Shown in pieces: positions 1 through 25,454 of a DNA stretch of 64,000 nt. The DNA lies in contig CM068827.1 in assembly GCA_028554795.2 (NCBI GenBank), forward strand, positions 137,462,268 through 137,526,267. Reading direction: 5' to 3'. Both the position numbers and the translations under genes were made by a program. Under the pieces are notes generated by a model that saw only the letters and a list, made by a program, of their open reading frames with translations, was not told the DNA's origin and ran no database searches. Numbering within the stretch: position 1 is the first letter of the stretch; each line of letters opens with the position of its first letter. This DNA is from Sinohyriopsis cumingii (taxonomy: Eukaryota > Mollusca > Bivalvia > Unionida > Unionidae).

Positions 1-1
1 A

Positions 2-499
2 GAACTGTTAGGAGAACGCGTCCTGTACTTTGACACGGACAGTTGCATTTACATCCATCACCCGATTCAACAGCACCCTGACATCGAAGGAGACCGTTTA
101 GGAGCCTGGACAGACGAGCATCCCGACGACAAGATTCTAAGTTTCGTCAGTGGTGGTCCCAAAAATTACGGCTACGAATACCGGGACAAACAAGGAGAAG
201 TGCACACGACGTGCAAAGTGAAAGGACTGACTCTGAATCATGGTACCAGTCGAGTGGTCAACTTTGGGGTATTGAAAGAAGCCTTGCAATCGGGAGAGGA
301 TGGAAACTTTAAAGTGACCACCTATCAACCGAACAAGATTGTACGTTTACCCACTCACCACATCGTCAGTCGACCCTTGGAAAAAGTCTATCAAATTGTA
401 TACCAGAAGCGAGTGCGACTTCCCAATCACTTCACCTTACCGTACGGTCACGTCGGTATTGGTCTGTATATGAAAAGGAACCCTAGGCAAGATCGATAG
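2..499 (+). CDS. polB: Protein-primed DNA polymerase B, C-terminal part (cut by window edge)
   Basis: Replicates the element from a protein primer. The open frame enters from the left edge with no start codon and runs 165 codons to TAG at 497-499. The family-B motif C, YFDTDS, lies at 26-43 and carries the catalytic metal-binding aspartates. Downstream come the blocks expected in Polinton and adenovirus-type polymerases: a thumb-like stretch with KGLTLNHGTSRVVNF and a C-terminal KRVRLPNHFTLPYGH. In Polintons the full protein is usually about 1,000 residues or more, so most of it, including the exonuclease domain and motifs A and B, is to the left. No break is seen in the visible part. Confidence 0.93.
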   Translation, partial: ELLGERVLYFDTDSCIYIHHPIQQHPDIEGDRLGAWTDEHPDDKILSFVSGGPKNYGYEYRDKQGEVHTTCKVKGLTLNHGTSRVVNFGVLKEALQSGEDGNFKVTTYQPNKIVRLPTHHIVSRPLEKVYQIVYQKRVRLPNHFTLPYGHVGIGLYMKRNPRQDR

Positions 500-566
500 T
501 TCATTGTTCATTGAAGTAACTTACCATGTCGTTGACGAAGAAGAAACCAGATTGGTTAGGAGTCAA

Positions 567-773
567 ATGTTGGACATCACCGAGACCAGGGTTTTGAGGC
601 TTGGACACAAGAGGTGGCCCAGTATGCACGAGAGTTATTCAAGGAAAAAAGTTACTTTTCAACCTGTGTTAGTGACGGTGCCAGAAGAACCCGTCACCCA
701 GGACAGGACTGTCGTGGACAGGCCTGAAAGACCCTTTCGGGAGGACACTTGTGTGACCTTACCCCTACTATAG
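567..773 (+). CDS. Small hypothetical ORF between polB and the ATPase, possibly broken
   Basis: I do not recognise this product. The frame has an ATG at 567 and a TAG at 771-773 (68 codons) and is open further upstream without an ATG. A second frame starts with a well-placed ATG at 526 and reads MSLTKKKPDWLGVKCW before a TGA at 595-597, directly after a T-run at 591-594; a third frame is open just beyond. This pattern, with protein-like composition jumping frames, suggests one small gene of about 80-90 codons that has taken a frameshift. It lies right behind polB and before the poly(A) signal at 923. It could also be untranslated 3' sequence. Confidence 0.3.
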   Translation: MLDITETRVLRLGHKRWPSMHESYSRKKVTFQPVLVTVPEEPVTQDRTVVDRPERPFREDTCVTLPLL

Positions 774-922
774 AACTGGTTAGAACTTTACCCAAAACAT
801 GTTGTACAGACACTTGTGTTTATTCCACGTTCATGGTTATCATGTGCCTTTTATTCTTGTACTTAAGCCTTTGGCTTTTATGTATTTTTTGTCTTTCGTA
901 TTCATGTTTGAAAAAAACATTC

Positions 923-928
923 AATAAA
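923..928 (+). terminator. Poly(A) signal AATAAA behind the polB unit
   Basis: A canonical AATAAA followed by GT-rich sequence (CGTGTTCTG) lies 71 bp before the ATPase start codon and just upstream of that gene's TATA box. It is well placed to end the transcript of polB and the small ORF. Confidence 0.55.
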
Positions 929-943
929 CGTGTTCTGAAAAAG

Positions 944-950
944 TATATAA
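944..950 (+). promoter_or_regulatory. TATA box of the packaging ATPase gene
   Basis: TATATAA lies 49 bp before the ATG at 999, so a start site about 25-30 bp downstream would give a short leader. It directly follows the poly(A) signal at 923, so one transcription unit ends where the next begins. Confidence 0.55.
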
Positions 951-998
951 ACTCTTGTCTTGTTTGTTTTTCGTGTCACAAGTGACATTTCTCACACC

Positions 999-1742
999 AT
1001 GGCTACCTCTGCTGTCTCTGCTCCCTCTTCCTCTACTGTCAAAGTCATCGACGAACACTTAGATCGTGCCAGTTGGGAGGCTTTGTATCTTCGCCATCCC
1101 TTTAACATGCTCATTGCTGGACCTAGCGGTTCAGGCAAAACCGAATTCGTCAAACGTTTGATCCAACATAAACATCATTTGATCGATCGACCTCCTCAGC
1201 GGTTCGTGTGGTGTTACAAAGAGTGGCAATCGGCGTACAGCCTCTTGCGAGAAAGTCAAGGTGATTCCATCGTGTTTGTGGAAGGCATTCCTAAAGAAGA
1301 CGATGGCATCGTCTCTGACTCCCGTCTAACCCATTTGGTCATTTTCGACGACATGTTAGGAGAAGACGAAGAAGAAATTAAACTGTGGTTCACGCGCAAA
1401 GGGCATCACCGTAATGCCAGTGTCATTTACATCACCCAAAATTTGTTTCAACAAAGTAAAGCCCATCGCACCATCAGTCTCAATGCGCATTACGTGGTCT
1501 TGTTTAAAAGCCCTCGAGATAAATCGCAAGTGCAAGTCTTAGCCAAACAGTTAGGAACGCCTTGGTTGACTCAGGCGTACGACGATGCCACTCAAACTCC
1601 ACACGCCTATTTACTCGTCGATTTGAAACCTACGACTCCCGAGGATTTGCGATTTCGTACCCACTTGTTGCACCACTGGTGCCAAGACGGAGGGCCTGTC
1701 CTGTACACGTCTCCGTCCTCGACTTCATTTCACTCCCCATAA
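999..1742 (+). CDS. FtsK/HerA-superfamily genome-packaging ATPase
   Basis: Motor ATPase that would pump the element's DNA into its capsid. The 247-residue protein has a Walker A motif GPSGSGKT at residues 41-48 and a Walker B motif LVIFDDML at 113-120, followed by SVIYITQNLF at 141-150, the usual sensor-like strand of the A32-type packaging ATPases found in Polintons and large DNA viruses. The ATG at 999 is chosen because it has a strong context (caccATGg) and lies downstream of the TATA box; the frame is open 13 codons further upstream but without a better start. TAA is at 1740-1742. Length fits the family and no damage is seen. Confidence 0.93.
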   Translation: MATSAVSAPSSSTVKVIDEHLDRASWEALYLRHPFNMLIAGPSGSGKTEFVKRLIQHKHHLIDRPPQRFVWCYKEWQSAYSLLRESQGDSIVFVEGIPKEDDGIVSDSRLTHLVIFDDMLGEDEEEIKLWFTRKGHHRNASVIYITQNLFQQSKAHRTISLNAHYVVLFKSPRDKSQVQVLAKQLGTPWLTQAYDDATQTPHAYLLVDLKPTTPEDLRFRTHLLHHWCQDGGPVLYTSPSSTSFHSP

Positions 1743-1749
1743 AAAAATC

Positions 1750-1757
1750 TATAAAAA
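1750..1757 (+). promoter_or_regulatory. TATA box of the 1798 gene
   Basis: TATAAAAA begins 7 bp after the stop codon of the ATPase gene and 48 bp before the next ATG. Initiator-like TCACT (1781) and TCAGT (1787) follow at 31-37 bp. The intergenic gap is therefore only a promoter. Confidence 0.55.
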
Positions 1758-1797
1758 CCTCAGACCCTTTTTCGTCTGTCTCACTCTCAGTGCGAAC

Positions 1798-2718
1798 ATG
1801 ACGTCCCTTCAGTCGCATCTTCCCGTCAAATTGATTCGTGCCTTGTATGGCATCAGTCGAGAAAAAAATCCACAAACACGAGCTCGTGTCTTAGAAGCTG
1901 GTCTCAAAGAAGTCTTACGATGGTTCACGGTGACGGCACGTCAATTACTCCAAGGAATCATTCAGATTCCTCATCAAACCAAACGCTTTTTCGATCGAAA
2001 CAAAGTCGCTTTGGTCCAACTGGCCGATCCCCGCATCGACACTCAAACCAAAAAACAAATCATTTGGAAACCTGGAGGGAGCGGTACTCTAGGAGGGGTC
2101 ATCATTCGCTCACTCTTAAGATGGGATCCTAATGCCCCCAAAGTTATCCCCAAGACAAAAGTCCAACGAAGCCCCAAGAAGAAAAAGACCAGGTCCCCAA
2201 GGAGAACTTCTCCAGTGGCAGGACCCTCCTCTGACCAGACACCACCACCACCCCGGAAAAAGAAAAGAAGCCCCCAGAAAAAGAAAAGTCCACAGAAAAC
2301 TAGTCGCAAGAGAGGCACTTCGGCCAGGACGCAACCTTACACTCGCAAACCACGACCTGCCACGGCGGTGACTGCGTCTCCGGCAGCTTCACGTTTGTCC
2401 ACTTCTCCGTTAATGACACCCAGAACTGAAGAGTACTTGGAGACGTTGATCACACCAAGAACTTCTCCGTTGATGACCCCCAAAAGAACTTCCCCAGTGG
2501 CAGGACCTTCCAATTTAGTGGCAGTGGCTGCTGCTCACAAAGTACCTTCTCCCAAAATCAAAGTTCAAGAAAGATCGGGCATGTTACAAAGTTTGCTGGA
2601 TTTGTCCAAGCAAGAACTGGCTCGATTTAGTCCGTTACGTACCCCTGCACGACGTGTCATGCCTGTCCTCAAACTAATACGACGTAAAGACAATCAGTGG
2701 CGACGTGTTCCAGTATAA
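1798..2718 (+). CDS. Basic virion core-type protein with SPKK-rich tail
   Basis: A 306-residue protein in two parts. Residues 1 to about 105 form a helical domain ending in a Gly-rich hydrophobic stretch (KPGGSGTLGGVIIRSLL). From about 115 the chain is Lys/Arg/Pro/Ser-rich with SPKKKK, SPRR and SPQKKK motifs like those that bind the minor groove in histone H1 tails, and repeated RTSPVAGPS and TSPLMTP units. The likely role is packing the genome in the virion, comparable with adenovirus core proteins, but that is inferred from composition and place. The N-terminal domain lines up with the whole protein of the next gene, so the two may be paralogs. The stop codon TAA (2716-2718) lies inside the next gene's TATA box. 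Confidence 0.8.
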   Translation: MTSLQSHLPVKLIRALYGISREKNPQTRARVLEAGLKEVLRWFTVTARQLLQGIIQIPHQTKRFFDRNKVALVQLADPRIDTQTKKQIIWKPGGSGTLGGVIIRSLLRWDPNAPKVIPKTKVQRSPKKKKTRSPRRTSPVAGPSSDQTPPPPRKKKRSPQKKKSPQKTSRKRGTSARTQPYTRKPRPATAVTASPAASRLSTSPLMTPRTEEYLETLITPRTSPLMTPKRTSPVAGPSNLVAVAAAHKVPSPKIKVQERSGMLQSLLDLSKQELARFSPLRTPARRVMPVLKLIRRKDNQWRRVPV

Positions 2719-2726
2719 AAAAGGCC
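2714..2726 (+). promoter_or_regulatory. TATA box overlapping the preceding stop codon
   Basis: TATAAAAAAGGCC contains the TAA stop (2716-2718) of the upstream gene. An initiator-like TCAGT is at 2744-2748, and the next ATG is at 2777. A near-identical motif precedes the 3212 gene. Confidence 0.6.
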
Positions 2727-2776
2727 TGTGACCAAGTCGGGTATCAGTGTTTTTTGGTGCTCGTGAAGACTCAAAG

Positions 2777-3163
2777 ATGTCACCCTCCAGAAAACCCCAA
2801 GGAAAGAAAAGGAAAGGACTGCCACCACGTTTAGCCAAACATGGGGACATGTTATCTGTCCTGTCCAAAGCTTCTCCACCCCTACGAAAAAAACTCATTC
2901 AAACAGCCTCCAAAGAGGTCATCGATACCGTGTGCGAATGTTGTTTGAACGTTTTGAAAGGCACGATCCCTTTGTCCAAACACCAGAAACAATGCTTAGG
3001 CAAACATCGTCACGTTCTTCGCCAAATGGTTCAAAAGAAAATTCCCATTCTTCAAAAAAGGAAGATGTTAGTGCAACGTGGAGGTATTTTACCTCTCTTG
3101 TTAGGCCCCATACTGAAAGGAGTCTTGGGAACCATGTTGGGAGGACTGGTGGGAGCAAGATAA
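2777..3163 (+). CDS. Small basic Polinton core-type protein with RGG-hydrophobic C-terminus
   Basis: A 128-residue basic protein of a type seen in many invertebrate Polintons next to the capsid genes: a Lys-rich N-terminus, a helical middle with KEVIDTVCECCLNVLKG, then a KKRK-like stretch leading into LVQRGGILPLLLGP and a Gly/Leu-rich end. The molecular role is not established to my knowledge; a nuclear-targeted virion core protein or a membrane-active peptide precursor are both plausible. The ATG at 2777 is used because the frame's upstream extension has no ATG and would start at the predicted mRNA cap site. The stop TAA at 3161-3163 lies inside the next TATA-like motif. Confidence 0.82.
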   Translation: MSPSRKPQGKKRKGLPPRLAKHGDMLSVLSKASPPLRKKLIQTASKEVIDTVCECCLNVLKGTIPLSKHQKQCLGKHRHVLRQMVQKKIPILQKRKMLVQRGGILPLLLGPILKGVLGTMLGGLVGAR

Positions 3164-3170
3164 AAAGGCC
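3160..3170 (+). promoter_or_regulatory. TATA-like box overlapping the preceding stop codon
   Basis: ATAAAAAGGCC, preceded by G, contains the stop codon at 3161-3163 and lies 52 bp before the ATG at 3212. It shares the TAAAAA-GGCC core with the box at 2714. Confidence 0.5.
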
Positions 3171-3211
3171 TCGGAAGTTCCAAGATCTCAGAATCGAACC
3201 CTGACAACCCC

Positions 3212-3841
3212 ATGGAAGGACGAAAACTAGCTTTAGTGCCTTACAAACGATGGATGGAATACCATCGGTGGCAAGAACAACGCACCCCGCATTTACCTCC
3301 CAATCCCCATTTGAGCGAGATGTCCCAGTTACAACACGAATTGCAGTCCTTGATCAATCGCCAAGATTTGTCCGAAACAGAAAAATCGCAAAAGTACGGT
3401 CAACTCTTGCAACGACTGCAACTCTTTCACCAGAAAGCTTTAGACGAAACAGCTCTACCCACTTTGAAAGATTTTAAGACCTTGATGAAAAGTCCAGCAC
3501 CATCACCAGTACCAGTACCAGTGACCAAGACAGAAAAAGGAAAAGAAGAAGAAGAAGAAGGGTTTCAAACTCCGCCAGAAAAAGTTCGCAAGTTAACAAC
3601 ATCACCTACATCCAGAATTGGATGGATTAAAAAGATGATGGCCACCCCTTCTTCATCACAAGAGAAAAAGAAAGTGAAGACAGAAGTGAAGACAGAAGTG
3701 AAACAAGAACCGATATCCCCCGCTCAGACATCCTCCTCCTCTTCGACACCTATTGCCGGTCGCACACGTAAAGCATTGCAATCCAAGAAAATACCCCAAG
3801 AGAAAAAGAGTAGCATCCTCCAAGAGTGGGTGCCTTATTAA
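3212..3841 (+). CDS. Polinton coiled-coil/basic protein of unknown function
   Basis: A 209-residue protein. The first ~20 residues contain LALVPYKRW. A helical Gln/Leu-rich segment follows at about residues 37-80 (LQHELQSLINRQDLSETEKSQKYGQLLQRL), a pattern I associate with a protein commonly found beside Polinton capsid genes. The rest is low complexity: a PVPVPV stretch, a poly-Glu run, and Lys-rich repeats (KVKTEVKTEVKQEP), where KTEVK and VKQEP resemble SUMO-type consensus sites. The N-terminal part could support oligomerisation and the tail nucleic-acid or nuclear contacts, but I cannot assign a function. The start has its own TATA-like box. Confidence 0.72.
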   Translation: MEGRKLALVPYKRWMEYHRWQEQRTPHLPPNPHLSEMSQLQHELQSLINRQDLSETEKSQKYGQLLQRLQLFHQKALDETALPTLKDFKTLMKSPAPSPVPVPVTKTEKGKEEEEEGFQTPPEKVRKLTTSPTSRIGWIKKMMATPSSSQEKKKVKTEVKTEVKQEPISPAQTSSSSSTPIAGRTRKALQSKKIPQEKKSSILQEWVPY

Positions 3842-3861
3842 CACACCAACCAACACAAAAA

Positions 3862-4971
3862 ATGGAAAAAGTCTTAGCCAGCATTTACTACGATCCCTCC
3901 CATCCTGCAGTTTACGCAGGAGTTCAAAAATTGTATCGTGCTGCCAAAACGCGACTGAAAAGTCTCCGTTTACCTCAAGTGCAACGATGGTTACAAGAAC
4001 AAGCTACCTACACTTTACACAAACCCATTCGACGCAAGTTTGCCAGAAGTCGCACCCGAGTGGAAGGCATCGATCATCAATGGCAAGCCGATTTAGCCGA
4101 TGTCTCTCATTTGGCCAGCTACAATCGTGGCTACAAATATTTGTTTTGTGTCATCGACGTCTTTTCCAAATTTGCTTGGGTCGTACCCTTGACTTCCAAA
4201 TCGAGCAGCGAGTTAGTGCGAGCCCTGCAACGGGTGTTGAAACAAAGCGGTCGTCACCCTCTTCGATGGCAAACGGACAAAGGCACCGAATTTCTGAACC
4301 AAGATTTCCAAAAAGAATTAAAGAAACGTGACATTCATTATTTTACCACCGAGAATCCCGAAACCAAAGCCAGCATCGTGGAACGTTTTCAACGCACTTT
4401 GAAAGAACGCATGTGGAAATATTTTACGCATCACCACACTCTGAAGTACATCGACATCTTACCGCACCTGGTGCAAGCGTACAACCAATCTTAGCATCGA
4501 AGCATTGGACGTGCCCCGCAAGACGTGACTCCCGACAACGAAGTGTTAGTGTTTGAGCGCCTGTTTGGTACGTCCCCGACGAGGGCTGTCCCCAAGAAAA
4601 GTGGAGACTTGGCCGTAGGAGATTGGGTGCGCATTGGCAAAACCAAACGCACTTTCGACAAAGGTTACTTACCTAACTGGACGACCGAATTGTTTCGCGT
4701 CACTGGACGAGTGCATGGCCGTCATCCTGCCGTCTATAAATTGGAAGACATGAACGGAGAAGTGCTCAAAGGAACGTTTTATTTGCCCGAGTTACAACGT
4801 GTGACTAAAAAAGAAGACGACGTGTACGACATCGAAAGCATTCTCGAACGCAGAACCCGTAAAGTGGGCAAACGACGTGTCAAAGAAGTCAAAGTACGTT
4901 GGAAAGGATATCCGCCCAGTTTTGATTCTTGGATCGACGCTTCGCAAGTCATCGACTATAAAAAGAAGTGA
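3862..4971 (+). pseudogene. Integrase (DDE, rve-type) with C-terminal chromodomain, interrupted by an in-frame TAG
   Basis: Retroviral-type integrase that would insert the element into host DNA. The catalytic triad is visible: D77 (in WQADL), D139 (in QTDKG) and E174 (in SIVERF), with the spacing of about 35 residues usual for the second and third. The last 50 codons (4819-4968) form a chromodomain with VRWKGYPPSFDSW, expected to read histone-tail methyl-lysine and steer integration to chromatin. At codon 211 (4492-4494) there is a TAG; the same frame then stays open to TGA at 4969-4971, so no bases were gained or lost. As it stands only a 210-residue catalytic fragment without the chromodomain would be made unless the stop is read through. 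Confidence 0.9.
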
Positions 4972-4976
4972 CCATC

Positions 4977-5391
4977 ATGCCCTTTCACACAGCAGACGCA
5001 GCTACGTCGACCACTCCTCCTTCCCCTAGTTCTTCTGTGCAAGATTTACAAAAACAACCCTTGTGGGTGTGGTGTGGAGAACGTGTGCCTAAAACGCAAA
5101 TCCTTTTTCTGCCAAATCTTCGTGGTGTATTGTGTCATCGGGGCAGCCATCGCCAATTTGAGTTTGCAACAAGGAGACAAACAATTGTGGACCATTTTAT
5201 TGAGCAGTTGCATCGGTTACCTGCTTCCTAATCCCTTCCTGAAATTCACCTCGAACGGGAACCCCGGGAACCTTGTGTCCAGTGCCAGTGCCAGTCACCA
5301 CTTCAATCACAACCAGAACCCCATTTTAGACGGAGACACGCCTCTGACGTCCAGTAACCCCTCGGACAGCCACAGAACTCTGGAATTATGA
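4977..5391 (+). pseudogene. Small single-pass membrane protein of Polintons, with a frameshift
   Basis: The ATG at 4977 opens a frame that reads a Ser/Thr/Pro-rich N-terminus and then turns into unrelated sequence. From about 5095 the conserved part lies in the next frame: a charged KRKSFFCQ, a hydrophobic segment (IFVVYCVIGAAIANLSL), then GDKQLWTILLSSCIGYLLPNP. This pattern, one membrane span followed by an LxxGDxxLW block, recurs in Polinton proteins encoded before the penton gene; the function is unknown. The two frames meet at an A-run (5091-5094), where a one-base length difference would explain the break. The downstream frame ends in TGA at 5389-5391, overlapping the next gene's ATG. 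Programmed frameshifting is possible but I favour a mutation. Confidence 0.62.
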
Positions 5392-6311
5392 GTCACCAAA
5401 ACCAATTTTACTTAACTTTACCCAGTGACAGTTCCATGGAGGTGTTTCCCAAGAACACGTTGTGCTGTTACACGGCCAAATTACCTCAGGCCATCCAGTT
5501 AGATCACGAAGCCCATTGGGAAGTGGCTTTAGTAGAAATGATTCACCCGACCCAAGTCCTCAATGTCCTTCCCAATCAAAATTTTTTTGATGTGGAAGTT
5601 CATGACGAGCAAATGCAACAGTGGATGGATAGCAATGTCAAATATGACAAGAAAACCCGTACACAAAAGTACACCACCTATCACTTGTTCATTCCCCCAG
5701 GCTATTATTTTAGTGGTCAACATTTGGTCAGCACCATAACCTCCAGGTTTAATGTCGTGTTTCTGAAAGCTTTGGAGCATGTCAACAAAAATGTCACCAT
5801 GGAGTACCACAAAGCAGCTCGTCGCTTCTTGATGAAATTTGAACGAAGTAAAATCGTGTCCATTTTATTTTGTCCTGAATTGTATGACATGTTGGGCGGA
5901 GACATGGACATGAGAAAGACCATGCTCAAGAAAAACGAATTACCCATCGTTTACGACAACGAGTCTTTTAGCAAGTTATTTCGTGCCCCGGTAGAACTGA
6001 ACCAAGGACTGAATTTGATGTTCGTGTATTCCGATGTGGTGGAGTACAACGTGGTGGGACACACCTCCGTACCGTTACTGCGTGTCATTCCTTTCAAAGT
6101 GGATTCTGCCACGAACGCTGACGAGGAAGGTGGAAACACTTACCACGTCCACCGCGAATTTGTCCATCGTCACTATTTACCTGTCAGTAAGTCGGATTTG
6201 GACACGGTCAACTTTGCTATAAAAGGAGATCTGGGACAAAATATTTCATTCACCAAAGGAAAAGTCACGGTGAAACTCCATTTTCGAAAACGGTTCTCTC
6301 ACGACTCGTAA
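5388..6311 (+). CDS. Penton-like minor capsid protein (single jelly-roll)
   Basis: Forms the pentameric vertices of the icosahedral capsid. The 307-residue product opens with NQFYLTLPSDSSMEVFPKN and continues with a WEVALVEMIHP block, both typical of the Polinton minor capsid protein (called PX in early Polinton papers and later shown to be penton-like). The C-terminus has HRHYLPVS and ISFTKGKVTVKLHFRKRF, the usual final strands. Length fits the family. The ATG overlaps the stop of the upstream frame as ATGA, which suggests translation from a shared mRNA. It is intact from ATG to TAA (6309-6311). Confidence 0.9.
   Translation: MSHQNQFYLTLPSDSSMEVFPKNTLCCYTAKLPQAIQLDHEAHWEVALVEMIHPTQVLNVLPNQNFFDVEVHDEQMQQWMDSNVKYDKKTRTQKYTTYHLFIPPGYYFSGQHLVSTITSRFNVVFLKALEHVNKNVTMEYHKAARRFLMKFERSKIVSILFCPELYDMLGGDMDMRKTMLKKNELPIVYDNESFSKLFRAPVELNQGLNLMFVYSDVVEYNVVGHTSVPLLRVIPFKVDSATNADEEGGNTYHVHREFVHRHYLPVSKSDLDTVNFAIKGDLGQNISFTKGKVTVKLHFRKRFSHDS
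6218..6226 (+). promoter_or_regulatory. Possible TATA box inside the penton gene
   Basis: TATAAAAGG lies in the 3' part of the penton frame, 93 bp before the ATG of the pVI-like gene at 6319. It would give that gene a leader of about 65 bases. It may be coincidental coding sequence (AIKG). Confidence 0.35.
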
Positions 6312-6318
6312 GTAAGTC

Positions 6319-6735
6319 ATGTATCCAGTGTACCGAGGGGTTGCTCGACAGCGAGGACACGGTTTAGGAGACATGTTAAAATCGGCCTTTCGTTCGGTGG
6401 CCCCGGTGTTGAAACCGATGGTGACACGCGGATTGCACGCCTTGAAAGATGCGGCACTGACGCAAGGCAAAGAATTTCTCCAAAATGTCATCATCGACAA
6501 ACAAAACCCTAAAGAAGCCTTCATGAGGGCAGGCAAAAATGTCTTGCTGCAAACGGGTAAAGACATTTTAGGCCAACGAGAAACACCTATAAATGCCCTG
6601 CACGCTACCGAGTCAGGCATTCAGCAAGGACAAGGCAGAAAGAGACGACGAAGAAAACACCCTTTCACCAGACTTCAAGCGAGAAAAGCCAAGAAAAGAA
6701 GAACCGTTCGAGACTTAGACGTTTTCGATTATTGA
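6319..6735 (+). CDS. pVI-like small basic virion protein
   Basis: A 138-residue protein starting MYPVYRGVARQRGHGLGDML, a signature I recognise from small proteins placed between penton and major capsid genes in Polintons and related adeno-like elements. Residues about 15-90 predict amphipathic helices, and residues about 105-130 are strongly basic (GRKRRRRKH, ARKAKKRR), probably a nuclear localisation signal. By analogy with adenovirus protein VI it may line the inner capsid and act on membranes during entry; this is inference. It starts 7 bp after the penton stop codon. Confidence 0.75.
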   Translation: MYPVYRGVARQRGHGLGDMLKSAFRSVAPVLKPMVTRGLHALKDAALTQGKEFLQNVIIDKQNPKEAFMRAGKNVLLQTGKDILGQRETPINALHATESGIQQGQGRKRRRRKHPFTRLQARKAKKRRTVRDLDVFDY

Positions 6736-6751
6736 GAAAAGAGACAAAAAA

Positions 6752-8065
6752 ATGATGCACCGAGAATCTTGCGCTTGTTCCAAGACGGAATTGGATCTGT
6801 TTGCCATGCCCCCCACGATGATGACGATGCAAGAATCCCACTGGGTGGAATTTCACCCCGTCTCCTCACTGACCGATTCCGCTCCCATCGAGTTTGAAAT
6901 AAAAGGACAGCCCGAAGATTACATCGATCTGAATAGCAGTTACTTGTACCTGAAAGTCAAAATTCTAGATAAGACTGGAGGTGCTATAGACGATGAAGCA
7001 GTAGCTCCCGTCAACAATTTCATGCATTCCTTGTTCAGTGGAGTGGACTTGTACTTGAATAACAAACTGGTCAGTAGCAGCATGGATACTTACCCTTATC
7101 GTGCCTACCTGGAAAATCTCTTGACGTACGGAATAGATACCAAGAACACTCATCTCAATGCCTGTGTGGTATGGGAAGCTGACGAACCTACCAAGTTTGA
7201 AATATTGGAAACTGATGAAAAGAAAGACAACAATGATGGATTTGTAGAACGAAGAAAGAGATTCACGGGAGCCGACACAAGTTTAGAACTGATGGATCGC
7301 TTGCATTTGGACATGTGGTTGCAAGAAAAGCATTTGCTGAACGGGGTGGATGTCCGCCTGCGACTGAATCGTAGCAGTGCCGCTTTCCATTTGATGACTG
7401 ATAGTGACGGTTACAAAACCAAAATCCTAGAAGCCAGACTCTACGTACGCCGTGTGGAAGTGTTACCTAAAGTGGGAAACAACATTAGTCAGACGTTGAG
7501 CAGAACGACTGCCAAGTATCCCATACGACGCGTGGAAGTGAAAACCTTCACCATTCCCAAGGGACAGCGATCCATGATCGAAGATCATCTGTTCCAAGGA
7601 CAGTTACCCAAACGTTTGATCGTTGGTATCGTCGAGAATACAGCCTTCAACGGAGCTGCCGAAAAAAATCCTTTCTACTTTCAACACTTTGGCGTGTCCA
7701 AAATCGAAGTCGAAGTCGATGGCAAGACCTTGTGTACCCGACCTTTCGAACCTGACTTTACCAAGAAGAATTACTTGAGATCGTACTTGTCCCTGTACGA
7801 AGCCACCGGACAGTTAGGAACCAATACCAGTCACGGTATTACGTACGAGGATTATGCAGGAGGCTACGCTTTGTGGGCTTTCGATTTCACTCCAGACCAA
7901 GGCAGCGACGAGGGACATTTCCACCCTATAAAATCCGGCCAGATTCGTGTGGAAATTCAGTTTAAAGACCGAGACCCTGATGAAACGGTGAACGTCATCC
8001 TGTATGCAGAATTCGATAATACCATAGAAATCAACAGTTTGAGAGAAGTCATCCTAGATTACTAG
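6752..8065 (+). CDS. Major capsid protein (hexon-like double jelly-roll)
   Basis: Forms the trimeric capsomers. The 437-residue product contains the stretches by which the Polinton major capsid family is known: PIEFEIKGQPEDYIDLNSSY near the N-terminus, an N-F-M-H-S-L-F-S-G-V-D-L-Y-L-N block, PYRAYLENLLTYG, and NPFYFQHFGV with a FTPDQ segment in the second jelly-roll. Copies in animal genomes are often annotated as F54H12.2-like after a nematode copy. Two Met codons open the frame (6752, 6755); 16 bp separate it from the stop of the pVI-like gene. No breaks are seen, and TAG is at 8063-8065. Confidence 0.95.
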   Translation: MMHRESCACSKTELDLFAMPPTMMTMQESHWVEFHPVSSLTDSAPIEFEIKGQPEDYIDLNSSYLYLKVKILDKTGGAIDDEAVAPVNNFMHSLFSGVDLYLNNKLVSSSMDTYPYRAYLENLLTYGIDTKNTHLNACVVWEADEPTKFEILETDEKKDNNDGFVERRKRFTGADTSLELMDRLHLDMWLQEKHLLNGVDVRLRLNRSSAAFHLMTDSDGYKTKILEARLYVRRVEVLPKVGNNISQTLSRTTAKYPIRRVEVKTFTIPKGQRSMIEDHLFQGQLPKRLIVGIVENTAFNGAAEKNPFYFQHFGVSKIEVEVDGKTLCTRPFEPDFTKKNYLRSYLSLYEATGQLGTNTSHGITYEDYAGGYALWAFDFTPDQGSDEGHFHPIKSGQIRVEIQFKDRDPDETVNVILYAEFDNTIEINSLREVILDY

Positions 8066-8118
8066 AAACCATGGAAGACTGTTATCCCTCTTTACCTAAT
8101 GGAGAAACTTTTAGTGTT

Positions 8119-8398
8119 GGATTATTGTTAAAAATGTTAGAGTTGTTGTTGTTTAGTGTTAAGTGCTTTTTGAATAAAAAATGCTGTGTTTTGAAAAAAA
8201 TTGTTTGATGTTATATTGTTGGATTATTGTTAAAAATGTTAGAGTTGTTGTTTAGTGTTAAGTGATTTTTGAATAAAAAATGTTGTTTTTTGAAAAAAAT
8301 TGTTTGATGTTATATTGTTGGATTATTGTTAAAAATGTTAGAGTTGTTGTTTAGTGTTAAGTGATTTTTGAATAAAAAATGTTGTGTTTTGAAAAAAA
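8119..8398 (+). repeat. Tandem ~100-bp repeat carrying three poly(A) signals behind the capsid gene
   Basis: Copies begin at 8119, 8221 and 8320 (spacing 102 and 99 bp; the first has an extra TTG). Each contains GAATAAAAAATG followed by TGTTTTGAAAA, so AATAAA hexamers lie at 8173-8178, 8272-8277 and 8371-8376, with T/G-rich sequence after each. The repeat sits directly behind the major capsid gene and probably gives a strong or layered 3' end to the late transcripts. Confidence 0.85.
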
Positions 8399-8504
8399 TG
8401 CCTTTGTCTTTTGTTTAGCTATAAGAATGTTGGATTGATGCTCTTTCATTTCTTACTATCCCTCTCATGACACTCACTAAACGTTGCGACTCAAAAACCG
8501 TGTG

Positions 8505-8530
8505 GGGGATGTTTTCCTTCACGTCCGCGC
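8505..8530 (+). promoter_or_regulatory. 26-bp conserved upstream element, copy A
   Basis: Identical over 26 bp to 9364-9389 and 10204-10229: GGGG, then ATGTTTTCCTTCACG, then TCCGCGC. It lies 66 bp before the ATG at 8596. In this copy the place of the TATA box is taken by the weaker ACTTTAAG. The element contains a CACGTC core and a CG-rich end; I do not recognise its factor. Confidence 0.75.
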
Positions 8531-8595: not shown

Positions 8596-8955
8596 ATGTG
8601 CTCCAAACTAGCTAAACTCAACGAAGCCTACGTGAATTTGCATAGGGTCAGACACAGTCTGATACCGAAGCCAGAAGAAATAGAGAATGTGAGAATGTTA
8701 AAAATCACTGAAGACCTGATAGAAGAGCTCTTCAGAGAAGAAATGAACAGGGAAAAAGAAGAATGGACAGAGAAGTACAGACTTCAGAGACAGCAGCAAC
8801 AACAACAACAACAAGAGCAGCAGCAGCAACCTGAAGCTGACAGAGGCTTTGTCGATTGTCGTATCGACACCAAAGAGTTCTTCTTCTCTTTCCGAAGAAG
8901 CAGACCTATTGCCAGAAAGTCTATCCTCAGAGGACATCGCATTCTTAGAAACTAA
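8596..8955 (+). CDS. Accessory coiled-coil protein A (three-gene family)
   Basis: A 119-residue protein of unknown function. The N-terminal ~60 residues are helical (KLAKLNEAYVNLHRVRHSL, then ITEDLIEELFREEMNREKEEW), followed by a poly-Gln run (about residues 66-80) and a basic C-terminus with RRSRPIARKS. The first helical block resembles the proteins of the two following modules. The ATG at 8596 is the first in frame downstream of the conserved upstream element. The stop codon is followed after 35 bases by a histone-type hairpin. No known domain is visible; such charged proteins in virus-like elements are often early or regulatory, but that is a guess. Confidence 0.6.
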   Translation: MCSKLAKLNEAYVNLHRVRHSLIPKPEEIENVRMLKITEDLIEELFREEMNREKEEWTEKYRLQRQQQQQQQQEQQQQPEADRGFVDCRIDTKEFFFSFRRSRPIARKSILRGHRILRN

Positions 8956-8990
8956 AAAGAATGCCATAGCAAACAAAAAAAAAAAAAAAC

Positions 8991-9029
8991 AGCCCTTTTC
9001 AGGGCTACCCAAATACTCTAGAAAAGAAA
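8991..9029 (+). terminator. Histone-type mRNA 3' end, copy A
   Basis: A perfect hairpin AGCCCT-TTTC-AGGGCT (8991-9006; 6-bp stem, 4-nt loop) follows an A-rich stretch, is followed by ACCCA, and 14 nt later by the purine element GAAAAGAAA (9021-9029). These are the parts, in order and spacing, of animal replication-dependent histone 3' ends: SLBP hairpin, ACCCA flank, histone downstream element. A back-up AATAAA is at 9072-9077. Confidence 0.75.
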
Positions 9030-9290
9030 TAACGATCGATTTGCCAATGTGTGTAGGTAGAGTAGTGTGAAAATAAACACTAACTCTTTTTTAAAAATAT
9101 GTGAGGGTATGTGTTTGTGTTTGTAAGTGGTTAAGTAAGTTGGTATGAATAGTAGATTAAAATGATGTCTTTTTTGGTGTTTGAGGTGTATATTTGGGGT
9201 TAGATTGGATTGCTTTGCGTATGTGGATAGTCTATTGAAGTGATTTATAAAAAATTTTAAAATAGTGATGGGTAGCATAAAAAAGTGAGT

Positions 9291-9314
9291 GAGTGTTTCT
9301 TTTAGGTCCGAGCG
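9291..9314 (+). promoter_or_regulatory. Degenerate copy of the conserved upstream element
   Basis: TGTTTCTTTTAGGTCCGAGCG aligns with the 26-bp element with a gap and a few changes. The homology continues with copy C downstream (GTTGTT..TTGGT, then ATGATCTAGGTAAGATCAA at 9331 and 10241). No ORF follows before the copy B element at 9364, so this looks like the relic of a fourth module. Confidence 0.5.
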
Positions 9315-9363
9315 TTGTTGTTTTTTGGTCATGATCTAGGTAAGATCAATTTTATGTTTTTAG

Positions 9364-9402
9364 GGGGATGTTTTCCTTCACGTCCGCGCTTTCACTATAA
9401 AT
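9364..9402 (+). promoter_or_regulatory. Conserved upstream element copy B with TATA box
   Basis: The 26-bp element (9364-9389) is followed at once by a good TATA box, TATAAAT (9396-9402), 52 bp before the ATG at 9454. This supports reading the element as a core-proximal promoter motif in all three copies. Confidence 0.75.
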
Positions 9403-9453
9403 TGAAACTCGTTCGGCAGTCCAACTACCCTTGTTGATTGATCAACACCAATA

Positions 9454-9837
9454 ATGAACACGAGACTGGAGAAACTGTTGGAACTTCATGTGCATCTGGA
9501 ATATGCCAGGCGCATATTAAATGAACTGGCCGCAGAAGCCATTGTGGAGGAGGGAAGGATAAGAGAGGAGGAGGAAAGAAGAAACAAAGAAGAGGAGGAG
9601 AGAAGATATAAAGAAGAAGAGGAAAGAAGATACAAAGAGGAGGAGAGAAGATACAAAGAAGAGGAGGAGGAGGAGGAGGAAAAGGAGAGAAGAAGAAGAA
9701 ATTTCAGAATCCCAGAGAGCGAAAATTGGGATTCTGAAGCGACATATCCTGCCTCTGCCCTCTCCCCCCAAAAGGTAAAAAGTAACTGGGGGATAAGATG
9801 TGTATGCGGCGCCAGGCCTGGAAGGTGCCACCATTAA
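9454..9837 (+). CDS. Accessory coiled-coil protein B (three-gene family)
   Basis: A 127-residue protein of unknown function. The helical N-terminus (RLEKLLELHVHLEYARRILNE) resembles protein A (KLAKLNEAYVNLHRVRHSL). Residues about 35-85 are an extended Glu/Arg/Lys run with repeated RRYKEEEE units, strongly coiled-coil-like and probably expanded by replication slippage. The C-terminus carries a short Ser/Pro-rich segment and VCGARPGRCHH. The start is the first ATG after the TATA box (ataATGa). The hairpin of a histone-type 3' end begins 32 bases after the stop. Confidence 0.6.
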   Translation: MNTRLEKLLELHVHLEYARRILNELAAEAIVEEGRIREEEERRNKEEEERRYKEEEERRYKEEERRYKEEEEEEEEKERRRRNFRIPESENWDSEATYPASALSPQKVKSNWGIRCVCGARPGRCHH

Positions 9838-9868
9838 CCAGGTGTCCATGAAGTTCCAAACAAAAAAC

Positions 9869-9906
9869 AGCCCTTTTCAGGGCTACCCAATACTCTAGAA
9901 AAGAAA
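9869..9906 (+). terminator. Histone-type mRNA 3' end, copy B
   Basis: The same hairpin as copy A, AGCCCT-TTTC-AGGGCT (9869-9884), then ACCCA (9885-9889) and GAAAAGAAA (9898-9906) after 13 nt. The downstream sequence up to about 10,040 is homologous to that after copy A, but the AATAAA seen there reads ATATAAA here, so no clear poly(A) signal remains. Confidence 0.75.
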
Positions 9907-10203
9907 TAACCATCAATTTACCAATGTGTAGGTAGAGTAGTGTGAATATAAACACTAACTCTTTTTTAAGATAGTGTGAGGGTATGTGTTTGTGTGTTGG
10001 TGCTTGTAAGAGCTAAGGTATGTTTGTGTGAATAGTAGATTATGGGTTTCTTTATTGTTTCTTAGCGTAGGTGAAGAGTATAGTTAGGGTTTTGTAAGCG
10101 CTCACGACCGATTGTGTGGATAGTAGATTATGGATTTTGTTTATTGTTTCTTAGCGTATGTGGAGAGTATAGTTTTGGTTCTATTATATGAAATGAGAAA
10201 GTA

Positions 10204-10229
10204 GGGGATGTTTTCCTTCACGTCCGCGC
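10204..10229 (+). promoter_or_regulatory. 26-bp conserved upstream element, copy C
   Basis: Identical to copies A and B over 26 bp, but followed by different sequence: TTGTTTGGTT and then ATGATCTAGGTAAGATCAA, a stretch also present at 9331. That stretch contains an inverted repeat (GATCT-AGGTA-AGATC) and a splice-donor-like AGGTAAG. No TATA box is seen; the ATG is at 10297. Confidence 0.7.
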
Positions 10230-10296
10230 GTTGTTTGGTTATGATCTAGGTAAGATCAATTTTATTAATTTATTGAGAGACATCTATTTCTGGATA

Positions 10297-10836
10297 ATGG
10301 ATGTAGAATATGTTTTAGGAAGAATAGAAGAGGAATGGAGGCATGGAGATATGAAAGACTTTGTAACGAGTCAAGTTCAAGGCCTAAAGACAGCAAGAGA
10401 CATCATAGCAGGGATGATTGAAGAAGAAGTCAGTAAGTCAAGAGGCTTCATTAACCCACCTTACTTCAGAGTGGGAAGTTTGAAGGAAGCACTGGATCAT
10501 GTCATCCAAGTCCGGTGCTTCCTAGAAAAAATATTGTCCTGGACAGAGTGGAGAAATGTAAAATGGGGATTGGAAAAGGTGAAGAAAGGGGAAGATCTGA
10601 TGAGAAAAGTAATGGAGGAAGAAGTAGAGAAGATTAAAGTGAAATGGAGGGAAGAAAGAAAAGATGTGGAAAGCAAAAAGAAACAGACAGAGTTTGAGAG
10701 GATGAATGAGAATTGGATCAAAGTCCAGGAAAAGTTTAGAGCCTTGGGCCATCCAGACTGGATGCCAGAGGAGAAAAAGAAGAAGAAAGGAATAATGGAA
10801 AAAGTGAGGACTTGGTGGAAGAAGTTAAGGAGTTAG
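10297..10836 (+). CDS. Accessory coiled-coil protein C (three-gene family, internally repeated)
   Basis: A 179-residue charged protein of unknown function. The block SLKEALDHVIQVRCFLEKIL plus GLEKVKKGEDLMRKVMEEEVEKI matches the pattern of protein A, and a second, N-terminal block (LKTARDIIAGMIEEEV) resembles the same unit, so the protein may hold two copies of the module. The C-terminus is basic (EEKKKKKGIMEKVRTWWKKLR). The frame is open upstream to the promoter element but its first ATG is 10297. The stop is followed after 24 bases by the best of the three histone-type hairpins. Confidence 0.6.
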   Translation: MDVEYVLGRIEEEWRHGDMKDFVTSQVQGLKTARDIIAGMIEEEVSKSRGFINPPYFRVGSLKEALDHVIQVRCFLEKILSWTEWRNVKWGLEKVKKGEDLMRKVMEEEVEKIKVKWREERKDVESKKKQTEFERMNENWIKVQEKFRALGHPDWMPEEKKKKKGIMEKVRTWWKKLRS

Positions 10837-10860
10837 AAGAAGAAGAAGAAGAAACCCAAA

Positions 10861-10901
10861 GGCCCTTTTCAGGGCCAGCCATATTTCTCGAAAAGAGATA
10901 G
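10861..10901 (+). terminator. Histone-type mRNA 3' end, copy C (closest to consensus)
   Basis: CCCAAA, then the hairpin GGCCCT-TTTC-AGGGCC (10861-10876), then AGCCA, then GAAAAGAGATAG (10890-10901) 13 nt after the stem. The GG..CC closing pairs and 5' CAAA flank match the animal histone stem-loop consensus; AAAAGAG is the core by which histone pre-mRNAs pair with U7 snRNA. Confidence 0.8.
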
Positions 10902-10980
10902 CCTTTCCATTGCCTACTCTTTTTTTAAATTTAAATTTAAATTTAAAAAAAAATTTAAAAAAAAAAAATCCCATATTCAA

Positions 10981-11180
10981 TTCCCCTTGTCGCTAGACAG
11001 ACCCACACTATAGTTCCATGTTAAATTCCCCTTGTCGCTAGAGTGACCCACGATTTTTCTCCATGTTAATTTCCCTTGTCGCTAATCTGACCCACGATTT
11101 TTCGCCATGTTAAATTTCCCTTGTCGCTAATCTGACCCAGGGGTCTCTGTAATGCTAATTCCCATTGTCGCTAATGTACC
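10981..11180. repeat. 45-bp minisatellite at the right edge of the element
   Basis: About 4.5 units, each with TTCCCTTGTCGCTAATCTGA, then CCCACGATTTTTCNCCATG and TTAAA; units start at about 10982, 11026, 11071, 11116 and 11159. It is preceded by a run of AAATTT repeats (10926-10970). It lies between the last accessory gene and AT-rich host DNA and may be part of the element's terminal repeat. Confidence 0.75.
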
Positions 11181-12065
<885 letters not shown>

Positions 12066-20774: not shown

Positions 20775-20905
20775 TAAAGCTGAGCTCCTAGTGAGGCAGC
20801 TGTGAGTACCACTTTTATAAGTCTTTGATATGACTCGGCCGGGTTCGAACCGACGACCTACCGCATCCGAGGCGGACGCTCTAACTACTAGGCCATCGGA
20901 GCGGT
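20775..20905 (-). mobile_element. tRNA-derived SINE of a second family
   Basis: On the minus strand, TGGCCTAGTAGTTAGAG (A box) and GGTTCGAACCC (B box) are followed by CATATCAAAGACTTATAAAA and a short tail. This form differs from the SINE at 17,950 and is probably not a functional tRNA because the acceptor halves do not pair. Confidence 0.7.
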
Positions 20906-22925: not shown

Positions 22926-23429
22926 TACTTTCATGGGGTGTCAGATTTCCTGCTTTACCCACATGATACTGGTTCTTTACAATTAAAAACTGATATAATA
23001 AATTAAGATGAGATGGATATTACAGATAATCTGACACTGGGCCACCGCGTGCAAAATTTGGAGGTCAAAAAGTCGCATTCTTATTGATACATGCATACTA
23101 AAAATTAGATCATTCAAATTCAGACTTTCTCTCCCACTCCCACCCCCACTCTGTCTCTGCTGCTAGCCCAAGAGTATGATTGAAATTTCATTGACGCATC
23201 TGAATATTTGCTGAAGTATAATTTATAATTTGCATAAGTTGATATTAATTTATTTATATTATTCACAACGTTGTAGTCACTCCTACAATCCAGTTTTCAT
23301 TTCAGTTTTGCTCGTGCAAAACTGAATTTCTCCAAAAGTAAAAACGGGTGAGTAAATCATTATCTGTAAAACTTTTATTTTCAGTTCTAAACAAACAAAC
23401 TTATGATTATTTTTGTCTCTGTTTCTCAG

Positions 23430-23784
23430 GTTGATGTCTTTAAAAGGGCCCAGCCGGTGGATTTGTCCAACTTTGTGGGAAACGGCGAGTGGGAGCTAAT
23501 TGGAGTCCATGCAGTTAGGAATGTGGTTTACTATCCCTGCTGCACCACGCCATTTCCGGATGTTACGTTCACCATCCACATTAGGAGGAGAACATTATAT
23601 TACACATACAACGTCATCGTCCCTTGCATAATGTTGTCCATTTTGACTCTAGCTGGATTTTGGATGCGACCAGATAGTGGAGAAAAAGTGTCATTGGGGT
23701 TGACGGTACTTCTAGCTTTCTCGGTGTTCATGCTTCTCATTGCCGAGAACATGCCAGCCACGTCAAGTTTCGTTCCTTTGATAG
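23430..23784 (+). CDS. Nicotinic acetylcholine receptor alpha-type subunit, penultimate coding exon
   Basis: Part of a pentameric ligand-gated cation channel of the nerve or muscle membrane. After a TTTCTCAG acceptor the exon encodes the end of the ligand-binding domain with loop C, including the adjacent cysteines of YYPCC that mark alpha-type subunits, then M1 (YNVIVPCIMLSILTLAGFW) and M2 (GEKVSLGLTVLLAFSVFMLL). The GEK start of M2 fits cation selectivity. The exon ends in ATAG, one base into a Gly codon. The frame runs on past this point but loses homology. The intron apparently starts with GC (GCAAGT at 23785). The signal peptide and Cys-loop exons were not found between 11 and 23.4 kb. 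Confidence 0.92.
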
Positions 23785-25187
23785 GCAAGTATCAAAATGC
23801 ATACAGTTTTATATCCAGCTATATTTAGATGAGCGTCCTTTTGACTGAAGTGAAACTGTTAATATTATCAAATTTAAGATAAAACAAGTAACGTACAAGA
23901 TGCATCATATGTTCATTCTGCCTTTGAACGGAAATAGAGAAATGCCTTTTTCTCCATAGGTCCAACACACACACACACATACACACAAATATATACATAT
24001 TTGCTCCTAGACATTGCCTAATTACTCGGGTTCATAAATATCTTTTAAACACATAATCCCCAATTCAAACAAATAATTACTAAAATCTACCACATAAATA
24101 AATAGCAGATACGCAGATTCAAATATCAAGGTGCAATAAGGTATAATTTGGTACTATATCACCAAAATTGACTAATAATTAACTTGATTAATAAGTATCA
24201 TCTGCTTAAAATTAATACCAGCTAAAATCTAGACAATGTCTAATAGTCGGCATAATGGTCACCTAATATTAGAATCCAGCATACGGTTGCTTTTCTGTAG
24301 TTGAGTCTGTTGAATACCATTCTATATCAACAGGTGTTACGTCTAGGCTAATTGCGTAGAAAATGATTCGTCTAAAGTAGGGATTGGCGACGTGGGTGAG
24401 CGAGGGTGGTGTTTCGACGCGGAAATTAATAAAATCGAAAATACACTCTTGGTATTTTGTTGCAGATAAGGTAGGTGGGTTATGATGTATGGCCTCACAA
24501 TATATAAAGAACATCGAGACATATTGATTGTATATCCGGGCACCCATAACAAAAGTCAACTGTCAACATTTTTTATATAGGTATCGTGACTGCTAAGTTT
24601 AAACAACGATGACTTTTTTTCTCTTTAGGTTTAAGTCAAAACTAAGAGTTCATAATTTCCTGGATTGTTTCAGTAAATTAAAATTGGTGAATGCAAAACA
24701 CCAATTTTAATTATATTTTTATCGAATCAAGCTATTTTGGCAAGACGTATATAAATAAGTAAATGTGTTCAAATTGTTTATGAAATTCCAATATTTAGAA
24801 ACGGCTGACAACATGCATTCAAAACAAAGCGGATCTGGTCCCAGTGTATAAGCAGAAACTTGAAATCATGATAACACAAGAAAATAATATTTTGCAAATA
24901 ATAAAGACAAATCGTTGTTACTGAATGAAAGCATATATGGTTTTGATTTAATGCTGTATTTCATTGGGTCTCATGAACACGTGCGTGTCTTGTATTGTGT
25001 TTTCCCTTTAAAACATTGGAGTTTGCAGAATAGATGCAAGTGAGTGAATGTTCTTCTTTTAATTTGTTTGTGTTTTTGTCTGTATTTAGTTGGTAAAACA
25101 AGACGTGATTGTTTAAGGTGGTTGTATTCCGTAACTATTTGTTTTACAAATGCAGCATAGATTTGGGATTACGGTCTTTATACATTA

Positions 25188-25370
25188 GTATGTATGTATG
25201 TATGTATGTATGTATGTATGTATGTATGTATGTATGTATGTATGTATGTATGTATGTATGTATGTATGTATGTATGTGTGTGTGTATGTATGTATGTTGT
25301 ATGTATGTATGTATGTATGTATGTATGTATGCATGTGTATGTATGTTGTATGTATGTATGTATCTATACA
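25188..25370. repeat. (GTAT)n microsatellite in the receptor intron
   Basis: About 45 near-perfect tetramers followed by a short (CCAT)n. It lies in the 1,670-bp intron 23785-25454, and its open frames (MYVCMYVC) are not coding. Confidence 0.95.
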
Positions 25371-25454
25371 GGTGCGTGCATTCCATCCATCCATCCATCC
25401 ATTACCACAACTGTCACATCAGTCTGTTCTATTCTTTTTTTGTTTTTGTTACAG

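What the first reader, a model, noticed from the sequence alone, without database searches (positions are those of the whole stretch)
8991..10901. Three viral accessory genes end in histone-type 3' processing signals
Each of three consecutive small genes is followed 24-35 bases after its stop by a hairpin with a 6-bp stem and TTTC loop (AGCCCT/AGGGCT twice, GGCCCT/AGGGCC once), an ACCCA or AGCCA flank, and GAAAAGA(A/G)A 13-14 nt further on. This is the layout of replication-dependent histone mRNA 3' ends (SLBP hairpin plus U7-pairing downstream element). Stem size, loop, flank, distance from the stop and distance to the purine element all agree in all three. If real, these mRNAs would lack poly(A) and be made or stable mainly in S phase, when a DNA virus or transposon would replicate. 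I know of no such report for Polintons.
Basis: partly seen in the sequence, partly recalled or inferred. Interest (0 to 1): 0.9.

Follow-up and report, generated by a model that had tools for sequence, protein, structure and literature searches.

The report
Histone-type mRNA ends on Polinton genes
Three small, dissimilar genes of a virus-like element in an animal genome end with the signal that animals use to finish histone messages, which suggests that the virus ties these genes to the phase when the host cell copies its DNA.

Summary
Hairpins lie at 8991-9006, 9869-9884 and 10861-10876, sense strand, 35, 31 and 24 nt after the stops of three small ORFs, each followed 13-14 nt later by GAAAAGA(A/G)A. 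Rfam's Histone3 model scores them 32.1, 31.0 and 35.6 bits (cut-off 34) and matches nowhere else in 64 kb up to E 10. The proteins match no histone family and are not clearly alike. So this is a cassette: shared 5' box, variable ORF, histone-type 3' end. It follows the capsid gene of a Polinton/adintovirus-like element; the core genes lack the hairpin, and the capsid gene is followed by AATAAA.

Best reading: host SLBP and U7 snRNP cut these mRNAs after the hairpin, giving poly(A)-less, S-phase-linked messages. Cleavage, U7 pairing in this host and timing are inferred; the host-genome service did not complete. Limits: copies 1 and 2 are a duplication; gene 1 has an AATAAA downstream; six distant relatives lack the hairpin. 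Prior trace: a 2025 survey counted six Rfam histone stem-loops in 8300 PLV genomes without discussing them in that section.

The parts
8991..9006 (+). histone-type hairpin 1, AGCCCT-TTTC-AGGGCT, 3' flank ACCCA
   Evidence: Rfam Histone3 32.1 bits at 8986-9030; RNAfold of the 55-nt stretch -9.0 kcal/mol
9021..9030 (+). purine element 1 GAAAAGAAAT (putative U7 pairing site), 14 nt after the stem
   Evidence: 5 of 6 match to AAAGAG
9869..9884 (+). histone-type hairpin 2, AGCCCT-TTTC-AGGGCT, 3' flank ACCCA
   Evidence: Rfam Histone3 31.0 bits at 9864-9909
9898..9907 (+). purine element 2 GAAAAGAAAT, 13 nt after the stem
   Evidence: 5 of 6 match to AAAGAG
10861..10876 (+). histone-type hairpin 3, GGCCCT-TTTC-AGGGCC, 5' flank CCAAA, 3' flank AGCCA
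   Evidence: Rfam Histone3 35.6 bits, above cut-off, at 10856-10901
10890..10899 (+). purine element 3 GAAAAGAGAT, 13 nt after the stem
   Evidence: 6 of 6 match to AAAGAG; can itself fold into a local hairpin
8596..8955 (+). accessory gene 1, 119 aa; helical N-terminal part, Q-rich linker, Arg-rich tail
   Evidence: 9 relatives among 12 candidates, E 1e-47 to 2e-22, alignment, model mean pLDDT 75
9454..9837 (+). accessory gene 2, 127 aa, E/K/R-rich
   Evidence: ORF; weak MAP7 match below cut-off; not searched in the large protein database
10297..10836 (+). accessory gene 3, 179 aa, predicted all-helical
   Evidence: 4 relatives among 68 candidates, E 2e-49 to 3e-44, alignment, model mean pLDDT 71
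8505..8530 (+). shared 5' box 1 GGGGATGTTTTCCTTCACGTCCGCGC
   Evidence: 26 nt identical in all three genes; 5' flank of gene 1 also conserved in relative P0126
9364..9389 (+). shared 5' box 2, followed by TATAAAT
10204..10229 (+). shared 5' box 3
6752..8065 (+). presumed major capsid protein gene of the element (last core gene; no hairpin)
   Evidence: 968 relatives among 6470 candidates, 120 listed, some named 'F54H12.2-like' in oysters; that this family is the Polinton capsid protein is recalled
8109..8399 (+). three tandem repeats of about 100 bp after the capsid gene, each with AATAAA (8173, 8272, 8371)
3862..4494 (+). rve integrase of the element
   Evidence: PF00665 E 1.5e-14
4750..4971 (+). 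chromodomain ORF next to the integrase
   Evidence: PF00385 E 1.1e-8, above cut-off
999..1742 (+). A32-type packaging ATPase of the element
   Evidence: PF04665 E 8e-8, above cut-off
1..499 (+). possible C-terminal part of a PolB gene running off the left edge (YFDTDS motif at 26-43)
   Evidence: recalled motif, reading frame; no Pfam match for the 165-residue fragment

Best explanation
The three accessory genes of a Polinton/adintovirus-like element carry real histone-type 3' processing signals. Shown from sequence: hairpin, flanks, purine element and spacing of replication-dependent histone genes, each just after the stop of a small uninterrupted ORF, plus a shared 26-nt box at a nearly fixed distance before the ATG. 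Inferred: the host's SLBP binds the hairpin, U7 snRNP pairs with the purine element, and CPSF73 cuts a few nt after the stem. The messages then lack poly(A), are stable and translated mainly in S phase, and follow a different programme from the core genes. The 5' box probably acts as a common promoter or enhancer element that puts the three genes in one regulon.
For: Rfam Histone3 hits of 35.6, 32.1 and 31.0 bits, the only ones in 64 kb up to E 10, all sense and all just after the three stops. Stem, loop, flank and spacing; first base pair changes A-U to G-C with pairing kept. Hairpin-to-purine-element stretch 75% identical between copy 3 and copies 1/2 against 29-40% in the flanks (Fisher p 1e-4 and 2e-5, on an alignment anchored by the hairpin), although the proteins show no clear similarity (best blastp E 0.016). 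26-nt identical 5' box starting 90-93 nt before the ATG. Gene 2 has no AATAAA/ATTAAA up to the next ORF and gene 3 none before an ATTAAA at 11246, while the capsid gene is followed by three AATAAA. Genes 1 and 3 have relatives elsewhere (9 of 12 candidates; 4 of 68). The 5' flank of gene 1 is conserved in relative P0126: 0 of 200 shuffles reach the score in two frames, 5 of 200 in the third.
Against: No RNA data; host SLBP, U7 and histone hairpins not seen. Copies 1 and 2 are one duplication, score below the Rfam cut-off, have A-U instead of G-C as first pair, and match AAAGAG at 5 of 6. Gene 1 has AATAAA at 9072. In gene 3 the purine element can itself fold into a local hairpin. The six Polinton-type loci at hand (25-44% capsid identity) show none. 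The DNA after the stop codons of the close relatives could not be read.
Confidence: 0.78

Rival explanations
1. Dual use: the hairpin gives a poly(A)-less S-phase form, and a downstream AATAAA gives a polyadenylated form outside S phase, as for human H2A.X. This overlaps with the best explanation.
For: AATAAA 66 nt after hairpin 1; H2A.X precedent seen in abstract and passages of PMC7807067.
Against: Only gene 1 has AATAAA; the duplicated gene 2 has AATATAAA there and gene 3 nothing near. C. elegans histone genes keep AATAAA yet end after the hairpin (PMC1924863 passages).
Confidence: 0.25
2. Decoy: the transcripts serve to titrate SLBP or U7 away from host histone mRNAs, keeping chromatin off viral DNA; the coding role is secondary.
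For: Several copies of the signal in one element.
Against: The ORFs of genes 1 and 3 are conserved as proteins, so they look made to be translated.
Confidence: 0.07
3. A captured histone 3' end spread by duplication and now without function.
For: Copies 1 and 2 are a duplication.
Against: Copy 3 keeps hairpin and purine element while its flanks have diverged; one pair is changed on both sides.
Confidence: 0.1
4. Generic palindrome signal for polyadenylation or termination, like the intergenic hairpins of mimivirus and its virophages (recalled).
For: Hairpin after each of the three genes; viruses of the wider group use hairpins (recalled).
Against: Histone consensus with flanks and purine element; 6-bp stem; absent after the core genes; no T run after the stem.
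Confidence: 0.04

Closest known systems
3' ends of metazoan replication-dependent histone genes (Rfam RF00032; SLBP/U7 pathway)
   Same: Hairpin, loop, flanks, downstream purine element, short distance from the stop, uninterrupted ORF (passages of PMC7026596, PMC5011920, PMC1924863).
   Different: The proteins match no histone family and the genes belong to a virus-like element; two copies have A-U as outer pair and a 5 of 6 match to the mammalian U7 core.
Polintons / adintoviruses of animals
   Same: Integrase with chromodomain ORF, A32-type ATPase, capsid family, and ATPase-integrase-penton-capsid order as in L001, whose first ORF is a PolB.
   Different: Histone-type 3' ends; none found in six distant loci L001-L006.
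Histone 3'UTR stem-loops (n = 6) counted in a scan of 8300 PLV/virophage genomes, PMC12220804
   Same: Rfam histone stem-loop in a Polinton-related virus genome (section 16 read whole, methods passage seen).
   Different: There only a count, none in cryptophyte PLVs; not linked to genes, purine element or processing in that section. Rest of the paper seen in passages only; its supplement not read.
Human H2A.X with both stem-loop and poly(A) site, PMC7807067
   Same: Hairpin plus purine element followed by AATAAA (gene 1 only).
   Different: Cellular histone gene; dual ends shown by experiment there (passages).

Membership tests
Replication-dependent histone-type 3' end | 6-bp stem, 4-nt loop and flanks scored by Rfam Histone3 | tested here: met
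   35.6 bits, above cut-off, for copy 3; 32.1 and 31.0, below the cut-off of 34, for copies 1 and 2
Replication-dependent histone-type 3' end | purine-rich element shortly after the stem | tested here: met
   GAAAAGA(A/G)A at 13-14 nt in 3 of 3
Replication-dependent histone-type 3' end | pairing of the element with the host's U7 snRNA | tested here: inconclusive
Replication-dependent histone-type 3' end | intronless gene, hairpin close to the stop | tested here: met
   single uninterrupted ORFs, 24-35 nt; introns in the UTRs not excluded
Replication-dependent histone-type 3' end | no poly(A) signal | tested here: inconclusive
   absent nearby for genes 2 and 3, present for gene 1; C. elegans histone genes keep one too
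Replication-dependent histone-type 3' end | RNA cleaved a few nt after the stem, no poly(A), S-phase abundance | not testable with these tools
   needs RNA
Replication-dependent histone gene | encodes a histone | tested here: not met
   no histone family in Pfam for the three proteins
Polinton/adintovirus | rve integrase | tested here: met
   PF00665 E 1.5e-14
Polinton/adintovirus | A32/FtsK-type packaging ATPase | tested here: met
   PF04665 E 8e-8, above its cut-off
Polinton/adintovirus | double jelly-roll capsid protein | tested here: inconclusive
   large family of relatives; no Pfam match; no solved relative by sequence; fold not predicted
Polinton/adintovirus | protein-primed PolB | tested here: inconclusive
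   YFDTDS motif at the left edge, but the 165-residue fragment has no Pfam match and no tblastn hit in L001-L006 at 1e-3; L001 itself has PF03175
Polinton/adintovirus | terminal inverted repeats and target duplication | not tested
   left end lies outside the window

The most novel reading that the evidence does not exclude
A virus-like element has built a regulon out of a host device: three dissimilar accessory genes share one 5' box and histone-type 3' ends, so that they are made as poly(A)-less, S-phase-linked messages while the capsid gene uses ordinary polyadenylation.
Probability: 0.5. Interest if true: 0.87.

Novelty: new variant of a known kind. Interest (0 to 1): 0.74.

Why it matters
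Histone 3' ends are, by textbook account (recalled), almost private to histone genes. A DNA virus that uses them would have a ready way to time accessory genes to host DNA replication without poly(A) machinery, and would offer a natural test of what the hairpin alone can confer on a foreign mRNA. Poly(A)-selected RNA data would also under-report such genes, which could help explain why they have gone undescribed.

Tried and rejected
Relatives in viral contigs: the capsid protein alone and as alignment, and alignments of accessory proteins 1 and 3, gave 0 confirmed loci. Two strict hairpin patterns gave 0 matches. A looser one gave 3 matches, L007-L009: no Histone3 match at E 0.05 in L007 and L008, a weak one in L009 (24.8 bits, cut-off 34). 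Their ORFs look phage-like by eye, and I take them as chance. The 5' box with two free positions gave 1 match, L010, with phage-type genes by eye, also chance.

Genome contigs with the capsid alignment gave 6 loci in bacterial MAGs; 3 of 6 titles name an animal host (Escarpia twice, Bathymodiolus). None has a Histone3 match at the cut-off; L001-L004 have none at E 1 (L005 and L006 were not scanned that way); the loose regex found only one U-rich stem, in L005. They hold 1.3 to 10 kb downstream of the capsid gene, so absence is well covered only in L002, L003 and L005.

Fold searches for protein 3 found nothing at E 0.001 (viral, PDB); protein 1's model was not searched. For the accessory proteins PHROGs gave one match (protein 1, phrog_332, E 2e-4) and NCBIfam one (protein 1, E 0.0037, far below its cut-off); I read both as coil-type noise. 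Minus-strand sbrA and L20 leader matches near the hairpins are below cut-off and antisense. The mir-297 matches are below cut-off; one lies in the TA repeat at 11345-11415.

Paper searches; I saw listings, some cut (10 of 35, 15 of 26, 15 of 195). PMC12220804 came up and I opened its passage. Passages of PMC11071296, PMC12721341 and PMC8363768 held no histone stem-loop; PMC11071296 does describe viral histone-like 'Histoid' proteins and a helical 'Cah' class.
Full report
WHAT IS THERE. Three ORFs on the plus strand (8596-8955, 9454-9837, 10297-10836) are each followed by a hairpin of six base pairs with a TTTC loop (8991-9006, 9869-9884, 10861-10876). Gaps from stop to stem are 35, 31 and 24 nt; GAAAAGA follows 14, 13 and 13 nt after the stem. 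Copy 3 reads CCAAA-GGCCCTTTTCAGGGCC-AGCCA; its stem is the one printed for C. elegans histone H3 mRNA ends in a passage of PMC1924863 (the loop there is CTTT).

IS IT MORE THAN CHANCE. In a scan of the 64-kb window, both strands, with all 4227 Rfam families up to E 10, Histone3 matches exactly three times, at the three hairpins, sense strand: 35.6 bits (E 1.2e-6, above the curated cut-off of 34), 32.1 (2.5e-5) and 31.0 (6.4e-5; both under the cut-off) (the 2.6-kb scan is). The control in the same scan: mir-297, a family prone to simple repeats, reaches E 5e-5, 1e-4 and 1.4e-3 while far below its cut-off, so E-values of copies 1 and 2 alone would not settle it; their position right after two stop codons does more. 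Only six 6-bp TTTC hairpins exist in 64 kb, and the other three rely on G-U or A-U pairs. The strict patterns have no match in the IMG/VR collection and a looser one three, which I take as chance.

INDEPENDENCE. Copies 1 and 2 sit in a duplication (8980-9159 and 9858-10042, 86%). So there are two, not three, lines of evidence. Copy 3 has diverged: identity to copies 1 and 2 is 75% from hairpin to purine element (30 of 40 columns each), 39% and 29% upstream and 40% and 38% downstream (Fisher p 1e-4 and 2e-5, on an alignment anchored by the hairpin itself). The outer base pair changed from A-U to G-C.

A CASSETTE. It starts 91, 90 and 93 nt before the ATG (from the distances 87, 86, 89 of its inner ATG), and exact matches to its parts occur nowhere else in the window. 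The proteins are not clearly related (best blastp E 0.016, genes 1 and 3; no hit for 1 and 2). Thus the common parts are the two ends, not the coding parts. A relative of protein 1, P0126, happens to be translated from upstream of its start. Those residues match the 5' flank of gene 1 better than all 200 shuffles in two frames and than 195 of 200 in the third, and its GVFSIASAL segment corresponds to the box (GMFSFTSAL in the window). In front of genes 2 and 3 the same segment is the best match in one frame each, with 2 and 11 of 200 shuffles as good.

THE ELEMENT. Left to right: a PolB-like motif at the window edge (the 165-residue fragment has no Pfam match), A32-type ATPase, rve integrase, chromodomain ORF, a penton-like protein (named by position, no profile match), and a capsid-family protein with 968 relatives among 6470 candidates. 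L001, a contig in a MAG of an endosymbiont of Escarpia laminata, has the same order ATPase - integrase - penton-like - capsid, with a 1397-aa ORF in front that matches PF03175, DNA polymerase B. The accessory genes follow the capsid gene. The element's right end and inverted repeats were not determined.

CONTRAST WITHIN THE ELEMENT. None of the core genes has the hairpin. The capsid gene is followed by AATAAA at 8173, 8272 and 8371 in a triplicated repeat of about 100 bp. Gene 1 has AATAAA at 9072 and ATTAAA at 9156; gene 2 has neither before the next ORF; gene 3 has neither up to an ATTAAA at 11246.

THE PROTEINS. Protein 1 has 9 relatives among 12 candidates (69-81% identity over 54-95% of its length), protein 3 has 4 among 68 (48-64%). 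Models: protein 1 two helices, a short beta hairpin and an Arg-rich tail (pLDDT 75, pTM 0.32), protein 3 all-helical (pLDDT 71, pTM 0.53). No fold match at E 0.001 for protein 3. Function unknown; a helical scaffold or regulator is a guess.

MECHANISM. Shown: the cis signals. Inferred: recognition by SLBP and U7 snRNP, cleavage by CPSF73, no poly(A), S-phase coupling. For the pathway I saw passages of PMC7026596, PMC5011920 and PMC7807067. The bivalve Lucina pectinata has such palindromes in its histone mRNAs, with purine elements in only some genes and at variable places (PMC6210712 passage), so spacing rules in molluscs may be loose. In copy 3 the purine element can form a local hairpin that might hide it.

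AGAINST. Six Polinton-type loci with 25-44% capsid identity have no Histone3 match at the cut-off, four of them none at E 1, and the loose regex finds no histone-like hairpin beyond one U-rich stem in L005. So this does not look like a general Polinton trait; it may be confined to one lineage. The host's U7, SLBP and histone genes could not be searched.

NOVELTY. Ten paper searches (not all aimed at this, listings seen and some cut short) over open-licence papers showed no description of viral or Polinton mRNAs ending in a histone hairpin. [quoted passage not shown] methods passage), without discussion in that section. A listing (start of abstract) reports SLBP binding to the SARS-CoV-2 frameshift RNA (PMC12166091), a different use of the protein. 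The kind of signal is known; its use for a co-regulated set of viral accessory genes seems new.

Noticed in passing
8505-8530, 9364-9389, 10204-10229: 26-nt identical box before each accessory gene; no other exact copy in the window; may be an S-phase or viral promoter element.
   Followed up: partly
8109-8399: About 100-bp sequence in three tandem copies after the capsid gene, each with an AATAAA: a triplicated polyadenylation region.
   Followed up: no
8975-8989: An encoded run of 15 A one base before hairpin 1; six A at the same place in copy 2.
   Followed up: no
9001-11000: Strong positive GC skew (0.32-0.43) in the accessory region, against values of -0.20 to 0.11 from 1 to 8000: purine-rich transcripts.
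   Followed up: no
10971-11175: Diverged tandem repeats (ATTCCCCTTGTCGCTA...) just after gene 3, perhaps near the element's right end.
   Followed up: no
23403-23828 and 25190-25987: Exons of a host neurotransmitter-gated ion channel gene, PF02931/PF02932.
   Followed up: no
41765-42112 (-): Weak Egg_lysin match (E 0.0038, below the Pfam cut-off); possible hint of a mollusc host.
   Followed up: no
20838-20895 (-): tRNA-like stretch just above the Rfam cut-off, perhaps a SINE.
   Followed up: no
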